64,000 nt of DNA from Solirubrobacterales bacterium (GTDB lineage: Bacteria; Actinomycetota; Thermoleophilia; Solirubrobacterales; 70-9), in assembly GCA_020438355.1 (NCBI GenBank), contig JAGQUT010000004.1, positions 1 to 64,000 on the forward strand, in the 5' to 3' direction. Positions 34,904-44,876 of this stretch are shown one piece after another; the first letter of the stretch is position 1, and each line of letters begins with the position of its first letter. The notes beneath the pieces are model-generated. The model searched no databases. It was not told the DNA's origin and worked only from the letters and a program-made list of their open reading frames with translations. The translations under genes and the position numbers were made by a program.

Positions 34904-36226
34904 ATGAAGAAGTTCCACGTCACAACCTTCGGCTGCCAGATGAACGAGCACGACTCGGAGCGGATGAAAGGCATGCTCACATCCCTTGGCTACTCCGAAT
35001 CCAGTGAGCGTGACGATGCCGATCTGATCCTCTTCAACACCTGTTCGATCCGTGAGAACGCTGACAACCGCTTCATCTCGCACCTCGGTGAGGCGAAGCG
35101 CCTCAAGGGCGAGGATCCGGAAAGGATCGTCGGTGTAGGGGGCTGCTGGGCCCAGTCGGTCAAAGACGAGGTCTTCCGCCGTTTTCCCTTCGTGGACGTC
35201 GCCTTCGGTCCCGGCCAGATCCACAAGCTGGCCGAGTTCCTCAACTCGGATCAGTTGACCGCGCAGGGCTACTTCGAGTTCGAGGATTTCGCCGGCCACT
35301 TGCCGTCACACCGCGCTCGGCAATTCCAGGGATGGCTTCAGATATCCCAGGGCTGCAACTGCGTCTGCTCGTACTGCATCGTTCCTTCGACCCGGGGTCG
35401 TGAACAGAGCCGCGACCCCCAGGAACTCCTGCTGGAAGCAGAGAAGCTCGCGGCCGAGGGTGTGCGCGAAGTGACCCTGCTCGGCCAGAACGTCAACTCC
35501 TACGGAAGGGACCTTCCGAAAGAGAGCCGGATCAGGTTCTCCGACCTGCTGGCGATGATCGACGCCGTCGACGGAATCGACCGGCTGCGCTACACGAGCC
35601 CTCACCCGAAAGACATGAGGGAAGACGTGATCGAAGCCCACGCCAGCCTGCCAAGCCTCTGCGAGCACATCCACCTGCCCCTGCAGTCAGGTTCCAGCCC
35701 GATTCTCAAGAAGATGCGGAGGACATACACCCGCGAGCGCTACATGGACAGGGTCGAGATGATCCGCGACAGGGTGCCGGACTGCGCCATCACCACCGAC
35801 ATCATCGTTGGCTTTCCAGGGGAGACCGAGGAAGACTTCAGCCAGACGCTCGAGGTGGTGGAGGAAGTCGGGTACGACGGCGCATTCACCTTTGTCTACT
35901 CGCCACGTCGCGGCACCCTCGCAGCCGACATGGAGGAACAGGTTCCACATCCGGTGAAGGTGGAACGGATGGAGCGGCTTGTCGAGGCGGTCCAAAGGAG
36001 AGCTCGAGAACGCTCGCAGCGGTTCGTTGGAAGGAACATGGAAGTCCTCGTAGAGGGGCCGAGCCGAAACGACCCGACCAGGATCCGGGGTCGCATCCGC
36101 CACAACAAGGCAGTGAACTTCGAAGGAACCGCGGAACCCGGCCAGATGGTTGAAGTCGAGATCTCTTCGGCCACCTCACAGACCCTGACCGGCAACGAAC
36201 GCCTGCTCAGCGGCATCGGCGCCTGA
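34904..36226 (+). CDS. miaB: tRNA-2-methylthio-N6-isopentenyladenosine synthase
   Basis: Radical-SAM methylthiotransferase acting on A37 after MiaA. 440 residues: MTTase domain with three cluster cysteines (TTFGCQMNEHD, FNTCSIREN, GGCWAQ), the radical SAM motif ISQGCNCVCSYCIVPSTRG, and a C-terminal TRAM domain (VEGPSRNDPTRIRGR, NFEGTAEPGQMVEVEI). Leaderless-type -10 TAATCT lies nine bases before the ATG. miaA follows after ten bases, so both enzymes for the same modification are co-transcribed. Confidence 0.95.
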   Translation: MKKFHVTTFGCQMNEHDSERMKGMLTSLGYSESSERDDADLILFNTCSIRENADNRFISHLGEAKRLKGEDPERIVGVGGCWAQSVKDEVFRRFPFVDVAFGPGQIHKLAEFLNSDQLTAQGYFEFEDFAGHLPSHRARQFQGWLQISQGCNCVCSYCIVPSTRGREQSRDPQELLLEAEKLAAEGVREVTLLGQNVNSYGRDLPKESRIRFSDLLAMIDAVDGIDRLRYTSPHPKDMREDVIEAHASLPSLCEHIHLPLQSGSSPILKKMRRTYTRERYMDRVEMIRDRVPDCAITTDIIVGFPGETEEDFSQTLEVVEEVGYDGAFTFVYSPRRGTLAADMEEQVPHPVKVERMERLVEAVQRRARERSQRFVGRNMEVLVEGPSRNDPTRIRGRIRHNKAVNFEGTAEPGQMVEVEISSATSQTLTGNERLLSGIGA

Positions 36227-36236
36227 GGAATCCGGC

Positions 36237-37175
36237 ATGCCGCCGGTGCCCCCGTCGCAGATGCCGGTGATCGCCATATTCGGGCCGACCGCGATCGGCA
36301 AGACCGGGGTCGCGATCGAACTTGGAAGGCTGCTGCGTGAGCGTGGGGGTGATCCGCTCGCGATCAACTGTGACTCGATACAGGTGTACAAGGGCCTCGA
36401 GGTGATCAGCGGAGCAGCATCGCCGGAGGATCAGGCGAGGCTCGAACACCGGCTTCTCTCATTCGTCCCGGTGGACACGGAGTACAGCGCCGGAAAGTTC
36501 GGAGCTGCGGCCAGAGACGAAATCGATTGCGCCCTGGAAAGCGGGCGCCAGCCGATACTGGTCGGTGGCACGGGGCTGTACCTGCGCGCGGCGATCAGTG
36601 ACCTTGAGATGCGCCCGCCAGTCGATCCGAAGCTGAGAACCGAAGTGGAGTCCGAGATCGAGTCCAGAGGGCCGGAAGCGCTGCACGCCGAGCTTCCCGA
36701 CGAATTCTCAGGGCAGGTCCACCCGAACGACCGGAAGCGCGTCGCCCGACTGACCGAGCTGGTTCGATCGGGCGCGGAACCACATCCGGACCATCAGGGC
36801 GGGGGGCAGCTGTGGACCACTTCTCCGAGACATCCCACCCTGCTGATCGGATTGGTTGAAGAAGACGCGCCGCTTGTCGAGAAGATCAGGCGGAGGGTGG
36901 ACTCGATGGCAAGGGGAGGAGCTGCAGCCGAGGCCGATTCGGCAGCTTCGGCCGGAGCGGTGAGGACGGTCAGGGCGGCAATAGGCTTCGACGAGTTCAG
37001 GCAGGGCGACCTCGAGCGGGTAGTCACCCTGCATCGCAGGTATGGCCGGCGACAGATGACCTGGATGCGCCGGTTGGACGGAATCGTGGTGCTGGACCGG
37101 ACCGGGCTCGGCGACGACGAGGTAGCGGCAGAGATCCTTGAACATCTGGACCAGATACCTTCCCGGGTCGCATGA
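36237..37175 (+). CDS. miaA: tRNA dimethylallyltransferase
   Basis: Adds the isopentenyl group to A37 of tRNAs reading UNN codons; MiaB uses the product. 312 residues. P-loop GPTAIGKTGVA (about 15-25), DSIQVYKGL, GGTGLYLRAAI, and C-terminal YGRRQMTWMRR. The region between about 185 and 245 is Gly/Ala/Ser-rich and does not closely follow the usual zinc-finger/swinging domain sequence. The stop overlaps the next gene start (ATGA). Confidence 0.92.
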   Translation: MPPVPPSQMPVIAIFGPTAIGKTGVAIELGRLLRERGGDPLAINCDSIQVYKGLEVISGAASPEDQARLEHRLLSFVPVDTEYSAGKFGAAARDEIDCALESGRQPILVGGTGLYLRAAISDLEMRPPVDPKLRTEVESEIESRGPEALHAELPDEFSGQVHPNDRKRVARLTELVRSGAEPHPDHQGGGQLWTTSPRHPTLLIGLVEEDAPLVEKIRRRVDSMARGGAAAEADSAASAGAVRTVRAAIGFDEFRQGDLERVVTLHRRYGRRQMTWMRRLDGIVVLDRTGLGDDEVAAEILEHLDQIPSRVA

Positions 37176-38014
37176 AGTTCGAAAAGTGGCAAGCACTAGG
37201 CAACGACTACATCATCATCGAGGACGCGAACCTGCCCTGGGAACTGACCCAGCAGCGCATCCAGCGGATCTGTGATCCCCATTTCGGGGTGGGCGCGGAC
37301 GGCATCCTCCTGCTCTCCCGTAGCGATGACCCTGAACTGGTCGCGAACCTCCGGATCTTCAATCCCGACGGTTCCGAAGCCGAACTCTCCGGTAACGGAG
37401 CTAGGGAAGCGATCCTCTACCTGCGGAAGCACGGTTGGACCGACTCCGAACGCTTCACGATCATGACCGTTTCCGGACCGGTAACCCCGACAATCACCTC
37501 CGAGCGAACCTGTGCGGTCGAAATGGGCCGGGCATCGACGACTTCAAAGGATTACCCGGAAGGCGGGCCAGACGGCAAGGGGACGCTGTCCTCGGGCGAC
37601 AGGGACTGGAAATTCCAGCATGTATCGATCGGGAATCCCCAATGTGCGATCGAGGCCGGCGCCGACCTGGAGGAACTCGATCTGGGCAAGATCGGCCCCG
37701 GGATCGAGAACAACGTGCTTTTCCCGAACCGGAGCAACGTCTCGTTCTACCGGGTCTCCGGATCAAGAGTCCGGGCTCGAATCTTCGAACGCGGCGTGGG
37801 AGAGACCCTCTCATCGGGTACCGGTGCGTCCGGGGCGGCGGTAGCTGCCTTCCTGAACGGGGCGCCGAGCCCGATCACAGTCGAACTTGACGGAGGCGAA
37901 CTCAAGGTCGAGATCACCGATGATCTGGATGTGACCCTCACCGGATGGGCCGAGCCGATCGCCGCCGGGGAGCTCGCTCCTGAGATGATGGCGGCTCTGG
38001 CCGACCTCGGCTGA
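37172..38014 (+). CDS. dapF: Diaminopimelate epimerase-like protein without the two catalytic cysteines
   Basis: 280 residues with the two-lobed DapF fold and most of its signatures: KWQALGNDYIIIED, FGVGADGILLL, RIFNPDGSEAELSGNG (about 61-76), IGNPQCAI, and ERGVGETLSSGTGA. DapF works with a Cys pair, in GNGxRC and ETxACGTG. Here the first is Glu79 (SGNGAREA) and the second Ser215 (ETLSSGTG). Base-level reading is unambiguous at both sites. So standard epimerisation of LL- to meso-diaminopimelate is doubtful. Glu at the first site recalls PhzF-type members of the superfamily, which lack the Cys pair. It overlaps miaA and lies just before dapL. Fold call is firm; function is open. Confidence 0.85.
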   Translation: MKFEKWQALGNDYIIIEDANLPWELTQQRIQRICDPHFGVGADGILLLSRSDDPELVANLRIFNPDGSEAELSGNGAREAILYLRKHGWTDSERFTIMTVSGPVTPTITSERTCAVEMGRASTTSKDYPEGGPDGKGTLSSGDRDWKFQHVSIGNPQCAIEAGADLEELDLGKIGPGIENNVLFPNRSNVSFYRVSGSRVRARIFERGVGETLSSGTGASGAAVAAFLNGAPSPITVELDGGELKVEITDDLDVTLTGWAEPIAAGELAPEMMAALADLG

Positions 38015-38061: not shown

Positions 38062-39231
38062 GTGGCGCTGACCGATCCATCCCGACGACTGCAGGCGATG
38101 CCGCCCTACATGTTCGCCGAGCTCGAAAAGAAGATCGCCGACAAGCGCGCCGCCGGGATCGACGTGATCAGCCTCGGAATCGGGGATCCCGATCACCCGA
38201 CCTACCCCCATGTGGTCGAGGCGATGCAGAAGGCCGTGGCCGATCGCGGAAACCAGAACTACCCCAGCAACCGGGGCCGCGAAGAGTTCCGGCAGTCCTT
38301 CTCCGACTTCTACCGTGACCGGTTCGGTGTTGACATCGACCCCGACAGCGAAGTGATTCCCGCCATCGGCGCCAAGGAGTGCATTTACAACCTCTGCTTC
38401 GCCTTCCTTGACCCCGGGGACGTCGCCCTGGCCTCCGACCCTGGCTACCCCGTCTACACGGGAGGCCCGATCCTCGCCGGCGCAGAAGCCGTACTGCTGC
38501 CGCTGAAGGAAGAACTCGGATTTGCACCCGATCTCGACGCGATCGACGCCCAGACTGCGGAGCGTGCCCGCCTGCTCTTCCTGAATTACCCCAACAATCC
38601 CTCGGGGGCCATCGTTCCCGATGGCTTTTTCGAGAAGGTCGTCGATTTCGCCCGCGAAAACGAGATTCTCGTCGTTCACGACAACGCCTACTCGGAAACC
38701 ACCTACGACGGCTACGTGGCGCCCAGTTTCCTATCCACCCCTGGAGCCAAGGAAGTCGGAGTGGAAGTGTTCTCGCTGTCGAAGGGCTACAACATGACCG
38801 GCTGGCGGGTCGGAGCGATTCTCGGCAACGCCGATGCCATCCAGACCTACTGGCGCCTGAAGACGAACGTGGATTCCGGTCTCTTCGAGGCGATCCAGCT
38901 CGCGGCAGTAGCTGCTCTGGACGGCCCGACCGCGCCGCTGGAAGAGATGAACGCGATCTACGCCCGCCGCAGGGACCTGACCGTGGACACCCTCCGCGCG
39001 ATCGGGGTGGACGTGAAGAGCCCCAAGGGCACGATCTACGTCTGGGCTCCAGTCCCCGACGGATACACCTCGACCAGTTTCTGCGAGAAGGTTCTCGAGG
39101 AGGCAGCGGTCGTGATCTCGCCCGGCTCGATGTACGGCCGAAGCGGCGAGGGCTACTTCAGGATCTCACTAACCACTCCGGACGAGCGCCTCACAGAGGC
39201 CCTCGAGCGGATGCGCGAGCACCTGGCCTAG
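38062..39231 (+). CDS. dapL: LL-diaminopimelate aminotransferase
   Basis: PLP enzyme that converts tetrahydrodipicolinate directly to LL-diaminopimelate. GTG start with a strong AAGGAG ribosome site. 389 residues. N-terminal RLQAMPPYMFAELEKKIADK and ISLGIGDPDHPTYP match the DapL2-type group; the PLP lysine is Lys241 in SLSKGYNMTGWR, with LNYPNNPSGA and HDNAYSE typical of class I/II aminotransferases. Assignment to DapL rather than a general aminotransferase is supported by the neighbouring dapF-like gene. Its TAG and the stop of the convergent gene share the palindrome CTAG (39228-39231). Confidence 0.88.
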   Translation: MALTDPSRRLQAMPPYMFAELEKKIADKRAAGIDVISLGIGDPDHPTYPHVVEAMQKAVADRGNQNYPSNRGREEFRQSFSDFYRDRFGVDIDPDSEVIPAIGAKECIYNLCFAFLDPGDVALASDPGYPVYTGGPILAGAEAVLLPLKEELGFAPDLDAIDAQTAERARLLFLNYPNNPSGAIVPDGFFEKVVDFARENEILVVHDNAYSETTYDGYVAPSFLSTPGAKEVGVEVFSLSKGYNMTGWRVGAILGNADAIQTYWRLKTNVDSGLFEAIQLAAVAALDGPTAPLEEMNAIYARRRDLTVDTLRAIGVDVKSPKGTIYVWAPVPDGYTSTSFCEKVLEEAAVVISPGSMYGRSGEGYFRISLTTPDERLTEALERMREHLA

Positions 39232-40269: not shown

Positions 40270-41535
40270 GTGACCAAATCGGTAGAGACATCCCGAACAC
40301 TCCGCGCGAAGCAGCGGGCGGTGATGATTGCGGTGGATACCACCGGGGATACGACCCTTGAAGAACTCGGGGAGCTTCTTCGCACCGCAGGAGTTGCCAC
40401 GGTCGGCGAAGTCATTCAACGGCGGAGCGAACCGGACCCCGACCGGTACCTGGGCCTCGGCAAGCTCGACGAGGTCAAGGAAGAAATCAGGCGAAGTGGC
40501 GCGAACCTCGTCGCATGTGACGATGAACTCGCTCCCCGTCAGGAGCGGAACCTCGAGGCGGCGCTTGAAGTCCCGGTGATCGACCGCACAGCGACGATTC
40601 TTGACATCTTCGCCGACCACGCCCACTCGGCCGAAGGAAAGCTCCAGGTCGAGCTGGCCCAGCTCGAGTACAACCTCGCCCGGATGCGCGGTCTCTGGAC
40701 CCACCTCGAACGACTCGGAGCCGGCATCGGAACGAGGGGACCGGGCGAGTCCCAGATCGAGACCGACCGGCGACTGGCTCGTGACCGCATCGCGGCGCTT
40801 CGTCGCCGTCTGCGTGACGTCGAACGCAACCGGGGAGTGATGAGGGCCCGCAGGCAGGACTCCTCCTTGCCGCAAGTTGCCCTGGCCGGATACACCAACG
40901 CGGGAAAGTCGACTCTTCTCAATGCGCTGACCGGGGCCGAAGTCAGCGTAGGTGACCGTCTGTTCCACACTCTCGACCCGACCACCCGTGCCTTCGAGTA
41001 CGAAGGCCGTCGCTATCTGGTCACTGACACGGTCGGATTCATTGAGAAGCTTCCCCACCAACTCGTCGAAGCGTTCAAGGCGACACTCGAGGAGACGGTC
41101 CTCTCGGACCTGATCCTCCATGTCGTTGACGCCTCGGCCGGGGAGGAGCGCATGAAGGCCGAGATGGCGGCGGCCGACGAGGTCCTTTCCGAAATCGGGG
41201 CCGGTGACAAGCCCAGGCTTCTGGTTCTGAACAAAATCGACCTTCTCGATGACGAGGCCCGCGCCGAAGCCCGAATCGACCATCCCGACGCGGTTCAGGT
41301 CTCCGCGGTCACGGGCGAGGGGCTGGAGAAGCTGCGCAGTGAGATGGAAAGGGCCTTCGAAGAGACCATGGCGCCTGTGGAATTGCTGGTTCCCTACTCG
41401 GAGGGAAGCAGGCTTCACGAACTCCACGAGGTCGCCGGCAAGGTTGACCGGGAAGACGGACCCGAAGGGGTTCTCGTTCGCACCCGGCTGCCGTTGGGCG
41501 AGATGCATCGTTTCGCCGACCTCGTGACCAGCTGA
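40270..41535 (+). CDS. hflX: Ribosome-splitting GTPase HflX
   Basis: Stress GTPase that splits stalled 70S ribosomes. 421 residues. The N-terminal HflX domain has IQRRSEPDPDRYLGLGKLDE and DHAHSAEGKLQVELAQLEY; the GTP-binding subdomain TRGPGESQIETDRRL precedes the G domain with AGYTNAGKSTLLNAL, DTVGFIEKLP and NKIDLL. GTG start 40270 has TAGCAT seven bases upstream and no ribosome site. Confidence 0.94.
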   Translation: MTKSVETSRTLRAKQRAVMIAVDTTGDTTLEELGELLRTAGVATVGEVIQRRSEPDPDRYLGLGKLDEVKEEIRRSGANLVACDDELAPRQERNLEAALEVPVIDRTATILDIFADHAHSAEGKLQVELAQLEYNLARMRGLWTHLERLGAGIGTRGPGESQIETDRRLARDRIAALRRRLRDVERNRGVMRARRQDSSLPQVALAGYTNAGKSTLLNALTGAEVSVGDRLFHTLDPTTRAFEYEGRRYLVTDTVGFIEKLPHQLVEAFKATLEETVLSDLILHVVDASAGEERMKAEMAAADEVLSEIGAGDKPRLLVLNKIDLLDDEARAEARIDHPDAVQVSAVTGEGLEKLRSEMERAFEETMAPVELLVPYSEGSRLHELHEVAGKVDREDGPEGVLVRTRLPLGEMHRFADLVTS

Positions 41536-42019: not shown

Positions 42020-42760
42020 CTAGCCGCGGCTTGCTGCGGTGAGGGCCGCCCGGTGGGCGGCATCTTCGAGCCGGTCATCAAGGGGTTCGAGAAGAGGCCG
42101 TTCTCCATGGTGGTGCTCGAGGCCGGTAGCGATCAGATAGTCCGCCAGCCAGGCGTTCTTCGGCAGTAGCGGACCGTGGAGGTAGGTGCCGATCAGGTTG
42201 TCTTCTTTAACGCCCTCGAAGCCGTCTTCCCCGTTGTTTCCGAAGCCGTGAATCACCTTGCCCAGCGGCGTGCAGTTGCCGAGCCGGGTTCGCCCCCCGT
42301 GGTTCTCGAAACCGGCCAGGGTCCTGGGGTGGCCCAGCAGGTCGACCTCGATTGCAACAGGGCCGATCAGCCTGGGACCGGGTTCCCGGACTGTCTTCAG
42401 GTCGACCAGCCCCAGTCCCTCGATCGTCTCGCCCTCGAGCTCGTAGGACTGGCCCAGCAGCTGGTAGCCGCCGCAGACGGCAAGAATCGCGGCGCCGGCC
42501 TCCTTGGCTTCTCTCATCGACTGCTGCTTGGTTTCGATCAGGTCCCTGGCCACCGCCTTCTGGTCCCTGTCCTGGCCACCACCCATGTAGAGCAGGTCAT
42601 GCTCGCCCGGATCGAACTCTTCGCCTGGACCGCAGCGGGTCACCTCGAAATCGATTCCCCGCCACTCGCAGCGGTGCTGGAGAAAGAGGATGTTCCCCCG
42701 GTCCGCGTAAATGTTCATCTGGTCCGGATAGAGGCTGAGGAGCCTTAGCTTCATGGTCAT
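42020..42760 (-). CDS. gatD: Lipid II isoglutaminyl synthase, glutaminase subunit GatD
   Basis: Supplies ammonia to MurT for amidation of the D-Glu of peptidoglycan stem peptides. 246 residues, class I glutamine amidotransferase (CobB/CobQ-like) with the nucleophile Cys96 in AVCGGYQLLG and His195 in GTYLHGPLLPKN. GatD normally sits directly beside murT; here a methyltransferase gene lies between them, still with four-base overlaps on both sides. Last gene of a five-gene minus-strand operon. Confidence 0.9.
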   Translation of the reverse strand: MTMKLRLLSLYPDQMNIYADRGNILFLQHRCEWRGIDFEVTRCGPGEEFDPGEHDLLYMGGGQDRDQKAVARDLIETKQQSMREAKEAGAAILAVCGGYQLLGQSYELEGETIEGLGLVDLKTVREPGPRLIGPVAIEVDLLGHPRTLAGFENHGGRTRLGNCTPLGKVIHGFGNNGEDGFEGVKEDNLIGTYLHGPLLPKNAWLADYLIATGLEHHHGERPLLEPLDDRLEDAAHRAALTAASRG

Positions 42761-43527
42761 GACTCTAGGGTCTGGTCGATTTCGTCTGCGTGACAGGCGA
42801 CCACGACCACCGTCGCGATGTGCCGTTCGGTCTCGGGTACCTCGATCGTACGGACGGCTGCCAGCCCTGCTTCGGAGATCTCTTCGGCAAGGGTGTGACG
42901 GTCCATCCGGTCGAGCGTGATGCTGTCGTGCGACTCCTCGAAAGAACCGTCAGGGGCGACGATCTGGCGCAGCCGGACCACCGTGAGCGCGTCGCCGTCG
43001 TCCTCGACTGCGACCGGCCTGCTCGCATAGACCCAGTTCCCGATTTCGCGGATGTCCGGAAGCACTTCGACCTCCCGTGACTCGCCGGGTACCCACTCGG
43101 AGATCGCAAAGGCGGCCAACCCGCCTGTTTCGAGCCGTTCCTTCACCCCTTCGATCAGCTTCTGACGGGAGACCTCGCCGCCGACGATGTGGAGAAGCTG
43201 CTGGGGAGCGAGGATCGCCTCGAACTTTTCCAGGCCGAGATCGACGCCAGCAAGCTCCGTTGCGTCTCCGGCGACCCCCCTGACCGGCTCGTCACCGGAG
43301 AGCCGGTTCAAGTCACCAACCAGAAGGGGGTCGAAGTCGAGACCGACCACCTCGGTCCCTGAGCGAGCCAGGTGCCGGGCGACCCTTCCGATTCCGCAGC
43401 CAAGGTCGAGAACCGGGCCCTGACCTGCGGTCAGCTCGGTCCAGACCGGAAGGTCGGCGGTGTACCCGCAGGACTCCGCGAGCTGCCAAACCGCTACTTC
43501 GGGCGAATCCAGGTCAGCGAGGATCAA
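42757..43527 (-). CDS. SAM-dependent methyltransferase within the murT-gatD operon
   Basis: 256 residues from a TTG overlapping the murT stop (TTGA). Class I methyltransferase: motif I VLDLGCGIGRVARHL (about 39-53), acidic motif II VVGLDFD, and the LAPQQLLHIVGG region. The substrate is unknown. Being inserted between murT and gatD with coupled translation at both ends suggests a link to cell-wall precursor chemistry, but this is inference; an independent housekeeping methyltransferase remains possible. Confidence 0.78.
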   Translation of the reverse strand: MILADLDSPEVAVWQLAESCGYTADLPVWTELTAGQGPVLDLGCGIGRVARHLARSGTEVVGLDFDPLLVGDLNRLSGDEPVRGVAGDATELAGVDLGLEKFEAILAPQQLLHIVGGEVSRQKLIEGVKERLETGGLAAFAISEWVPGESREVEVLPDIREIGNWVYASRPVAVEDDGDALTVVRLRQIVAPDGSFEESHDSITLDRMDRHTLAEEISEAGLAAVRTIEVPETERHIATVVVVACHADEIDQTLES

Positions 43528-44876
43528 CTGGCCCAGTACCGCCCTGAATCACCCCGCTGGGCAAGGAGGTTTCGAAGGTCAAGCAGGGCTGTGTAGGTAG
43601 GCAGGGCGAAGAGCTGACCTTCGGCTCCCGCGATCGCCTGGTCAAGGGCTGCCTCCGGGCTGTCGATTACGGCGGTGCGATCCACGGGCCATCCCGCGTA
43701 CTTGAGCCGCAGGGCCATCTCGGAAGCCCGGGTGCCGGTACAGGTGATGCGGCCGACGCGCTCGGAGAGGACCTCGAAATCCGCGTCCCAGATCCAGGAA
43801 ACATCCCGTCCGTCGGCGATCCGGTCGTTCAGGGCGATCCAGAGGTCGATCGGGGCCGGTTCGAGCGCGAGGGTACGGATAACTTCGTTTGCCCCGGCCG
43901 GGTTCTTGATCAGCAGGATGGAGAGGTCGACTTCTCCGATGGTGATCCGTTCGACCCGGCCGAAGACTGCCTTCATTCCGGCAAGGGCGGAAACGGCCCT
44001 GTCGACCGGGACTCCCAGCCTGGTCGCCGTCGCGATCGCGCCAAGCGCGTTGTAGAGGTTGTAGAGGCCAGGCAGGGGAAGCTCGAGTTCCGCCCTGCCT
44101 TCTGACGAATCAATGCTGGCGGTGAGACCGCTCATGCCCTTCAGGGTGATCGAGCTCGCCGAGAGATCAGGCCGGGGCCTCTCCATACCGCAGGAGTCAC
44201 AGTGGTAATGCCCGAGGTGACCGACGAAGGCGCGGTCATAAGTGAGTTCGTGGCCGCAGTTCCGGCAGAGCTTCGCGTCGTGGGCGTGCTGGAGCTCTGG
44301 CAGCGCCTGGGATTCGTCATCGATTCCGAAATAGATCGTTCCGGGACCGCTCGAGTTACCGATGTCAGCGACCAGGGGATCATCAGCGTTCAGAACGAAA
44401 CTGGTCTGGCCGGCAAGGGTGGCAGCCAGAGCCGCCCAGGCGTCGGCCAGGGCCTCGGTTTCCCCGTAGCGATCAAGCTGGTCCCGGAAGAGGTTGCCAA
44501 GAAGGATCGTCTTCGGCTGGAGCCGCTCCGCAACCTCGGGCAGCCAGGCTTCGTCGACCTCGAAAAGGCCCTCGTCACCCTTCTGCTCGGCCAGGGCGGT
44601 GGCGACGCCCCAGGTCATGTTCGACCCTGCCCGGTTGTGAACCGGGTGTCTTCCCTCCGCGGCGAGGATCGTCGCCAGCATCGACGCGGTCGTCGTCTTT
44701 CCGTTCGTGGCGCTGATAAGGGTGGTTCCAGCGCTCAGCCTGCTCCCGAGCTTGGTGATCGCGTCGCCGTCGAGCTTGAGCAGAACCCGTCCGGGGAGGG
44801 TGGTTCCGCCGCCGCGCCCCGAGGCCCGGCTGAGCCGCCCGATCGAGCGGGCCGTCCAGGTCTTGAAGCGGATCAA
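43524..44876 (-). CDS. murT: Lipid II isoglutaminyl synthase, Mur-ligase subunit MurT
   Basis: ATP-dependent partner of GatD. 450 residues from a TTG overlapping the upstream stop. Mur-ligase central domain with the P-loop SATNGKTTTASM (Lys60), an inserted zinc ribbon with Cys204, Cys207, Cys226 and Cys229 that is characteristic of MurT, and the C-terminal DUF1727 domain (LLIKNPAGANEVIRTL, DLWIALNDRIADGRDVSWIWD). All hallmark residues are present, so stem-peptide amidation is expected in this organism. Confidence 0.93.
   Translation of the reverse strand: MIRFKTWTARSIGRLSRASGRGGGTTLPGRVLLKLDGDAITKLGSRLSAGTTLISATNGKTTTASMLATILAAEGRHPVHNRAGSNMTWGVATALAEQKGDEGLFEVDEAWLPEVAERLQPKTILLGNLFRDQLDRYGETEALADAWAALAATLAGQTSFVLNADDPLVADIGNSSGPGTIYFGIDDESQALPELQHAHDAKLCRNCGHELTYDRAFVGHLGHYHCDSCGMERPRPDLSASSITLKGMSGLTASIDSSEGRAELELPLPGLYNLYNALGAIATATRLGVPVDRAVSALAGMKAVFGRVERITIGEVDLSILLIKNPAGANEVIRTLALEPAPIDLWIALNDRIADGRDVSWIWDADFEVLSERVGRITCTGTRASEMALRLKYAGWPVDRTAVIDSPEAALDQAIAGAEGQLFALPTYTALLDLRNLLAQRGDSGRYWAS

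What the first reader, a model, noticed from the sequence alone, without database searches (positions are those of the whole stretch)
37172..38014. DapF homologue with both catalytic cysteines replaced (Glu79, Ser215), adjacent to dapL
DapF catalysis depends on a cysteine pair in GNGxRC and ETxACGTG. This protein keeps the surrounding motifs but reads SGNGAREA and ETLSSGTG. Either the enzyme uses another acid/base pair (Glu at the first site recalls PhzF-type relatives), has lost function so that LL-DAP made by DapL goes directly to the wall or lysine, or does a different reaction. Its coupling to miaA and position beside dapL argue it is maintained.
Basis: partly seen in the sequence, partly recalled or inferred. 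Interest (0 to 1): 0.8.

Follow-up and report, generated by a model that had tools for sequence, protein, structure and literature searches.

The report
DAP epimerase with serine-serine active site
A cell-wall and lysine enzyme (diaminopimelate epimerase) that is taught to need two cysteines has a serine at both positions in this bacterium and in its whole order, where it appears to be the only enzyme that could do the job, which makes a textbook catalytic rule directly testable.

Summary
The ORF at 37172-38014 is a genuine DapF (TIGR00652, 189 bits, cut-off 114.65). H. influenzae/E. coli Cys73 is the Cys of "CGNG", not the one after the Arg, so the pair here is Ser73/Ser215. Glu79 replaces a non-catalytic residue.

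It is not an error or a decaying gene. All 97 Solirubrobacterales DapFs readable at both sites are Ser/Ser. dN/dS to close relatives is about 0.09, and both Ser codon families occur at both sites. All compared DAP-contacting residues are kept. Sister lineages have Cys/Cys in the same miaB-miaA-dapF-dapL operon.

Ser/Ser also occurs, usually as the sole DapF, in other Thermoleophilia, other Actinobacteriota, and the phyla of a Rokubacteria MAG and a Sulfurihydrogenibium MAG. The tree rejects a single origin (p-AU 0.006).

LysA is present in 25 of 27 Ser/Ser genomes tested, Ddh in only one genome, and no extra racemase tracks with Ser/Ser. Solirubrobacterales are reported to have meso-DAP peptidoglycan.

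Best reading: a working Ser/Ser DAP epimerase, though activity is untested. Engineered single Cys-to-Ser DapF mutants keep under 0.1% activity. A Solirubrobacterales-specific His159-to-Gln change adds doubt.

The parts
37172..38014 (+). dapF, diaminopimelate epimerase homologue with Ser/Ser active site (280 aa)
   Evidence: PF01678 134 bits, TIGR00652 189 bits over cut-off 114.65; AlphaFold pLDDT 95.8, Foldseek best match E. coli DapF 4ijz
37388..37390 (+). Ser73 codon TCC, equivalent of catalytic Cys73
   Evidence: alignment to E. coli DapF; lies directly before helix 74-86 in the model
37814..37816 (+). Ser215 codon TCG, equivalent of catalytic Cys217
   Evidence: alignment to E. coli DapF; lies directly before helix 216-228 in the model
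37406..37408 (+).
   Evidence: Glu 90% / Gln 10% across the order
37640..37642 (+). Gln157, equivalent of His159; Gln in all Solirubrobacterales, His in every other group compared
38062..39231 (+). dapL, LL-diaminopimelate aminotransferase (makes LL-DAP)
   Evidence: NF006756 547 bits over its cut-off 507; TIGR03540 531 bits, below its cut-off 593
36237..37175 (+). miaA, overlapping dapF by 4 bases
   Evidence: PF01715 over its cut-off; TIGR00174 140.8 bits, just below its cut-off 148.65
34904..36226 (+). miaB-like radical SAM/TRAM protein, part of the conserved gene order
40270..41535 (+). hflX, end of the conserved miaB-miaA-dapF-dapL-hflX block
   Evidence: TIGR03156 432 bits; synteny in Ser/Ser and Cys/Cys relatives

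Best explanation
The gene encodes the organism's only DAP epimerase, and it interconverts LL-DAP (made by the adjacent DapL) and meso-DAP with a pair of serines where known DapFs use a pair of cysteines. LL-DAP binds as in ordinary DapF: the distal L-centre is held by Asn64, Asn155, Asn189, Glu206 and Arg207, and the reacting carboxylate sits between Gly74/Asn75 and Gly216/Thr217 at the N-termini of two opposed helices. Ser73 and Ser215, each at one helix start, would take the alpha proton from one face and return it on the other. Shown here: fold, binding residues, Ser/Ser identity, constraint, conserved operon, absence of known substitutes. Inferred: that the protein is active on DAP. Not shown at all: how a serine is made basic enough.
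For: (1) DapF equivalog match and high-confidence DapF fold. (2) The known DAP contacts Asn64, Gly74, Asn75, Asn157, Asn190, Glu208, Arg209 and Gly218 are invariant in Solirubrobacterales, as is Asn11; Thr at 219. (3) Same miaB-miaA-dapF-dapL-hflX/dut order in Cys/Cys relatives, so it is the orthologue in place. (4) Only PF01678 protein in the genome, and likewise in Solirubrobacter taibaiensis and Patulibacter americanus. (5) LysA present in 25 of 27 Ser/Ser genomes including this one; Ddh in 1 of 101 genomes of the order and 1 of 38 in a second set, the same genome; no extra Asp/Glu-type or Ala-type racemase in Ser/Ser compared with Cys/Cys genomes. (6) meso-DAP stated for all members of Solirubrobacterales (PMC3035278) and measured in Solirubrobacter (PMC10722151). 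(7) dN/dS about 0.09; TCN and AGY Ser codons at both sites. (8) Ser/Ser arose more than once: 6 label changes, at least 3 forced, one clade rejected p-AU 0.006. (9) Within the phylum of a Sulfurihydrogenibium MAG, Ser/Ser (19 genomes) and Cys/Cys (11 read) did not occur together. (10) A Ser can be one of the two bases in a related two-base epimerase: 4HypE with Ser93/Cys, and a Ser/Thr dehydratase (PMC4113996).
Against: No Ser/Ser DapF has been assayed in any paper found. Engineered Cys-to-Ser DapF and PddB keep under 0.1% activity (PMC8225329), and Cys-to-Ala mutants of C. glutamicum DapF almost none (PMC5296763). His159, called essential in PMC5885031, is Gln in this order. In the superfamily, losing one thiol can turn an epimerase into a dehydratase (PMC8142540). 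No compensating residue is shared by the Ser/Ser lineages: only the two sites themselves separate them from Cys/Cys. Some genomes carry a Cys/Cys DapF plus a Ser/Ser paralogue, which shows that Ser/Ser proteins need not be the main epimerase.
Confidence: 0.6

Rival explanations
1. The Ser/Ser protein has lost epimerase activity (kept as a DAP-binding, regulatory or structural protein), and a non-homologous, unrecognised enzyme such as a broad-specificity alanine racemase makes meso-DAP.
For: Cys-to-Ser mutants are nearly dead (PMC8225329). E. coli DapF has a second role as a partner of RppH (PMC4227774, abstract). All genomes tested have an Ala_racemase_N protein. His159 is also replaced in this order.
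Against: A dead enzyme need not keep every substrate contact and Ser at both sites over 97 sequences. The repeated, independent switch in lineages whose only DapF it is would need a replacement enzyme each time. One nearly complete Ser/Ser genome, G009, has a single PF01168 and a single PF01177 protein and no Ddh.
Confidence: 0.2
2. The protein acts on DAP or a close analogue but catalyses another reaction (for example a one-base elimination or isomerisation), as Ser/Thr relatives in the proline racemase superfamily do.
For: Precedent: Ser90/Thr256 t3HypD is a dehydratase (PMC4113996) and a Cys-to-Thr change converts an epimerase to a dehydratase (PMC8142540).
Against: The operon context (dapL next door) is identical in Cys/Cys relatives, DAP-binding residues are unchanged, and these genomes have LysA but neither a second DapF nor, with one exception, Ddh.
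Confidence: 0.1
3. The organism does not need meso-DAP: LL-DAP from DapL goes straight to the wall and lysine is imported or made otherwise.
For: DapL makes LL-DAP directly, and LL-DAP walls exist in other actinobacteria (general knowledge).
Against: LysA, which by established knowledge decarboxylates the D-centre of meso-DAP, is present in this genome. meso-DAP is reported for the order (PMC3035278, PMC10722151). This particular genome has no measured wall.
Confidence: 0.05
4. Glu79 with Ser215 forms the acid/base pair.
For: None beyond the misread motif.
Against: Glu79 aligns with non-catalytic Cys79 and is Gln in about 10% of the order and Ile or Cys in other Ser/Ser lineages.
Confidence: 0.02

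Closest known systems
Canonical diaminopimelate epimerase DapF (H. influenzae, E. coli, C. glutamicum; Cys73/Cys217)
   Same: Fold (best Foldseek match E. coli 4ijz, TM 0.84-0.86), DAP-contacting residues, operon context, genome role by elimination
   Different: Ser at both catalytic positions; Gln for His159 in this order; Glu/Gln at 79
Engineered C73S and C217S H. influenzae DapF (2q9h, 2q9j)
   Same: Serine at one of the same sites; both among the top structural matches
   Different: Single mutants made to block catalysis and help crystallisation; here both sites are Ser by nature
Proline racemase superfamily enzymes with Ser (4HypE B9JQV3 Ser/Cys; t3HypD B9K4G4 Ser/Thr)
   Same: Natural Ser in place of a catalytic Cys in the same general fold (PMC4113996)
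   Different: Different family and substrate; 4HypE retains one thiol, t3HypD is a dehydratase
PhzF family
   Same: Distant fold relative (Foldseek E about 1e-16, 14-16% identity)
   Different: No match over cut-off; the query's Glu79 is not at the catalytic position as aligned to DapF
O-ureidoserine racemase (7vdy), PddB, HisR/CntK
   Same: DapF-like racemases; 7vdy is a structural match with TM 0.85-0.89
   Different: They act on other amino acids; PddB, HisR and CntK use Cys pairs; PddB has lost the distal-carboxylate residues that this protein keeps

Membership tests
DapF (diaminopimelate epimerase) | Equivalog HMM TIGR00652 above curated cut-off | tested here: met
   189.1 bits vs 114.65; other Ser/Ser proteins 171-257 bits
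DapF (diaminopimelate epimerase) | Two-domain DapF fold | tested here: met
   pLDDT 95.8; DapF structures fill the top Foldseek ranks
DapF (diaminopimelate epimerase) | Residues contacting DAP (N64, G74, N75, N157, N190, E208, R209, G218) | tested here: met
   all conserved in the query and in 100% of Solirubrobacterales with a residue at the site
DapF (diaminopimelate epimerase) | Catalytic Cys73/Cys217 pair and PROSITE signature with Cys | tested here: not met
   Ser73 and Ser215
DapF (diaminopimelate epimerase) | His159 | tested here: not met
   Gln157 in the query and in the whole order; His in all other groups
DapF (diaminopimelate epimerase) | LL-DAP/meso-DAP epimerase activity | not testable with these tools
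   needs enzyme assay; inferred from pathway context
PhzF / PhzC-PhzF family | Family HMM match | tested here: not met
   no PF02567 or TIGR00654 hit at E 0.001 for the query
Proline racemase superfamily (PF05544) | Family HMM match | tested here: not met
   only PF01678 matched

The most novel reading that the evidence does not exclude
Nature has repeatedly replaced the thiol/thiolate pair of DapF with a hydroxyl/hydroxyl pair that carries out full two-base epimerisation of an unactivated amino acid. Thiols would then not be required for cofactor-free amino-acid epimerisation, and a large, correctly placed but wrongly understood DapF class would exist in several phyla. One possible gain is immunity to the disulfide that shuts C. 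glutamicum DapF.
Probability: 0.5. Interest if true: 0.85.

Novelty: new variant of a known kind. Interest (0 to 1): 0.62.

Why it matters
DapF is a textbook two-cysteine enzyme and a drug target, and cofactor-free amino-acid racemases are explained by a thiolate that removes a very weakly acidic proton. A Ser/Ser DapF as the only epimerase of a whole order with meso-DAP walls would mean either that hydroxyls can do this chemistry or that an unknown meso-DAP enzyme exists; both are open, testable questions. It also means that HMM-based annotation names proteins DapF although their catalytic cysteines are missing (shown here for every Ser/Ser protein scanned), and that cysteine-directed DapF inhibitors should fail on them.

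Tried and rejected
Glu79 as catalytic base: rejected by alignment and by Gln at that site in about 10% of the order. Sequencing error: rejected by 97 of 97 relatives. A second canonical dapF: none in the own genome. Ddh bypass: absent in the order apart from one genome, G256. Extra racemase tracking Ser/Ser: not seen for PF01168 or PF01177; PF05544 and PF02567 were not searched genome-wide. A shared compensating residue in Ser/Ser lineages: scanned all columns, only the two catalytic sites came out. An early impression that the two sites always change together was wrong: Ser/Cys (11) and Cys/Ser (10) natural variants exist in the phylum. Literature: no description of a natural Ser/Ser DapF found, but the library lacks most subscription journals.

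Full report
What is there. The ORF at 37172-38014 (+), 280 aa, overlaps the end of miaA by four bases and is followed by dapL (38062-39231). It is a DapF by Pfam (PF01678) and by the NCBI equivalog TIGR00652 (189.1 bits, cut-off 114.65). AlphaFold gives a confident model (pLDDT 95.8, pTM 0.91), and DapF structures lead the PDB fold search (E. coli 4ijz TM 0.84-0.86; the engineered C73S and C217S H. influenzae structures are ranks 2 and 6).

Which residues. Aligned to E. coli DapF, Cys73 and Cys217 correspond to Ser73 and Ser215. PDB alignments agree, and the PROSITE signature puts the catalytic Cys before G-N-G-x-R (PMC8225329). So the finding is a Ser/Ser pair, and the Glu/PhzF idea falls away.

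It is fixed and constrained. All 97 Solirubrobacterales sequences that cover both sites are Ser/Ser. Both serines are written with TCN in most and AGY in some members, so serine itself is held; dN/dS against two close relatives is 0.08-0.09, and 0.14 against a more distant one. Residues known to contact DAP (Asn64, Gly74, Asn75, Asn157, Asn190, Glu208, Arg209, Gly218; roles listed in PMC8225329) are invariant. One other residue called essential, His159 (PMC5885031), is Gln in all Solirubrobacterales but His in all other groups.

Same gene in the same place. Cys/Cys relatives in the class (L103-L106, L108) have the same RecA/Rny-MiaB-MiaA-DapF-DapL-HflX/Dut order. The Ser/Ser protein is therefore the orthologue in place, not an added paralogue, and proximity to dapL is ancestral.

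How widespread. In Thermoleophilia, Ser/Ser is also the state in group-code families f7 and f11, while f5, f6, f8, f9, f10 and f12 are Cys/Cys apart from one Ser/Cys (L167, f9). In the wider phylum Ser/Ser (f46, f49), Ser/Cys (11 sequences) and Cys/Ser (10) all occur. On a tree built without the two sites, Ser/Ser needs 6 changes, at least 3 forced by strong branches; on an 80-row tree one Ser/Ser clade is rejected (p-AU 0.0056). The direction of change is not inferred from the tree.

Is another route available? The genome has one PF01678 protein, as do Solirubrobacter taibaiensis and Patulibacter americanus. LysA, which by established knowledge uses meso-DAP, is present in this genome and in 25 of 27 Ser/Ser genomes searched. 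Ddh was found in 1 of 101 genomes of the order and in that same genome, G256, in the second set of 38. PF01177 and PF01168 counts do not separate Ser/Ser from Cys/Cys genomes. [quoted passage not shown] Solirubrobacter deserti has it too (PMC10722151). This lineage must therefore make meso-DAP, and the Ser/Ser DapF is the only recognised candidate.

Mechanism. Known DapF chemistry uses one Cys thiolate to take the alpha proton and the other thiol to give one back, with both at the start of opposed helices. In the model, Ser73 and Ser215 directly precede helices 74-86 and 216-228. I infer the same two-face transfer through serines. A precedent for Ser as one of the two bases is 4-hydroxyproline epimerase with Ser/Cys, while a Ser/Thr relative is a dehydratase (PMC4113996). 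Against this, Cys-to-Ser DapF and PddB mutants retain less than 0.1% (PMC8225329). What raises serine basicity is unknown: no third residue is shared by all Ser/Ser lineages and absent from Cys/Cys ones. A possible benefit is freedom from the inhibitory Cys83-Cys221 disulfide seen in C. glutamicum DapF (PMC5296763); this is speculation.

Verdict. Real, order-wide and convergent. Family membership holds on sequence, fold, binding site and context, and fails on the defining cysteine pair. It most likely works as a DapF, with about 0.6 confidence, pending an assay. No report of a natural Ser/Ser DapF was found in the open-access library, which does not prove that none exists.

Noticed in passing
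L192, L193, L195, L196, L199: Genomes in group-code families f26 and f40 carry a Cys/Cys DapF plus a Ser/Ser paralogue with SATG/SAAG in place of SGTG and changed Asn157, probably with another function.
   Followed up: partly
L232, L233, L237, L239, L243, L250 (Ser/Cys); L174, L190, L204, L210, L212, L215 (Cys/Ser): Natural DapFs with only one of the two cysteines replaced by Ser, a ready-made series for testing which base is needed.
   Followed up: partly
L084, L087, L091, L095, L098, L099: In some Solirubrobacterales, including Patulibacter americanus and Solirubrobacter taibaiensis, dapL is missing next to dapF; only a weak (29-34%) aminotransferase match on the opposite strand lies nearby.
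   Followed up: no
L113 (G256:C1:346057-346512): One genome of the same genus has a meso-DAP dehydrogenase-like gene and a second LysA over cut-off, by transfer or contamination.
   Followed up: no
window 42020-42760 and 43524-44876 (-): A GATase_3 protein and a MurT-like ligase lie close by on the minus strand, resembling the MurT/GatD pair that amidates lipid II (function from general knowledge).
   Followed up: partly
window 37640-37642: His159-to-Gln replacement fixed in Solirubrobacterales DapF only; its role with Ser/Ser is unexplained.
   Followed up: partly
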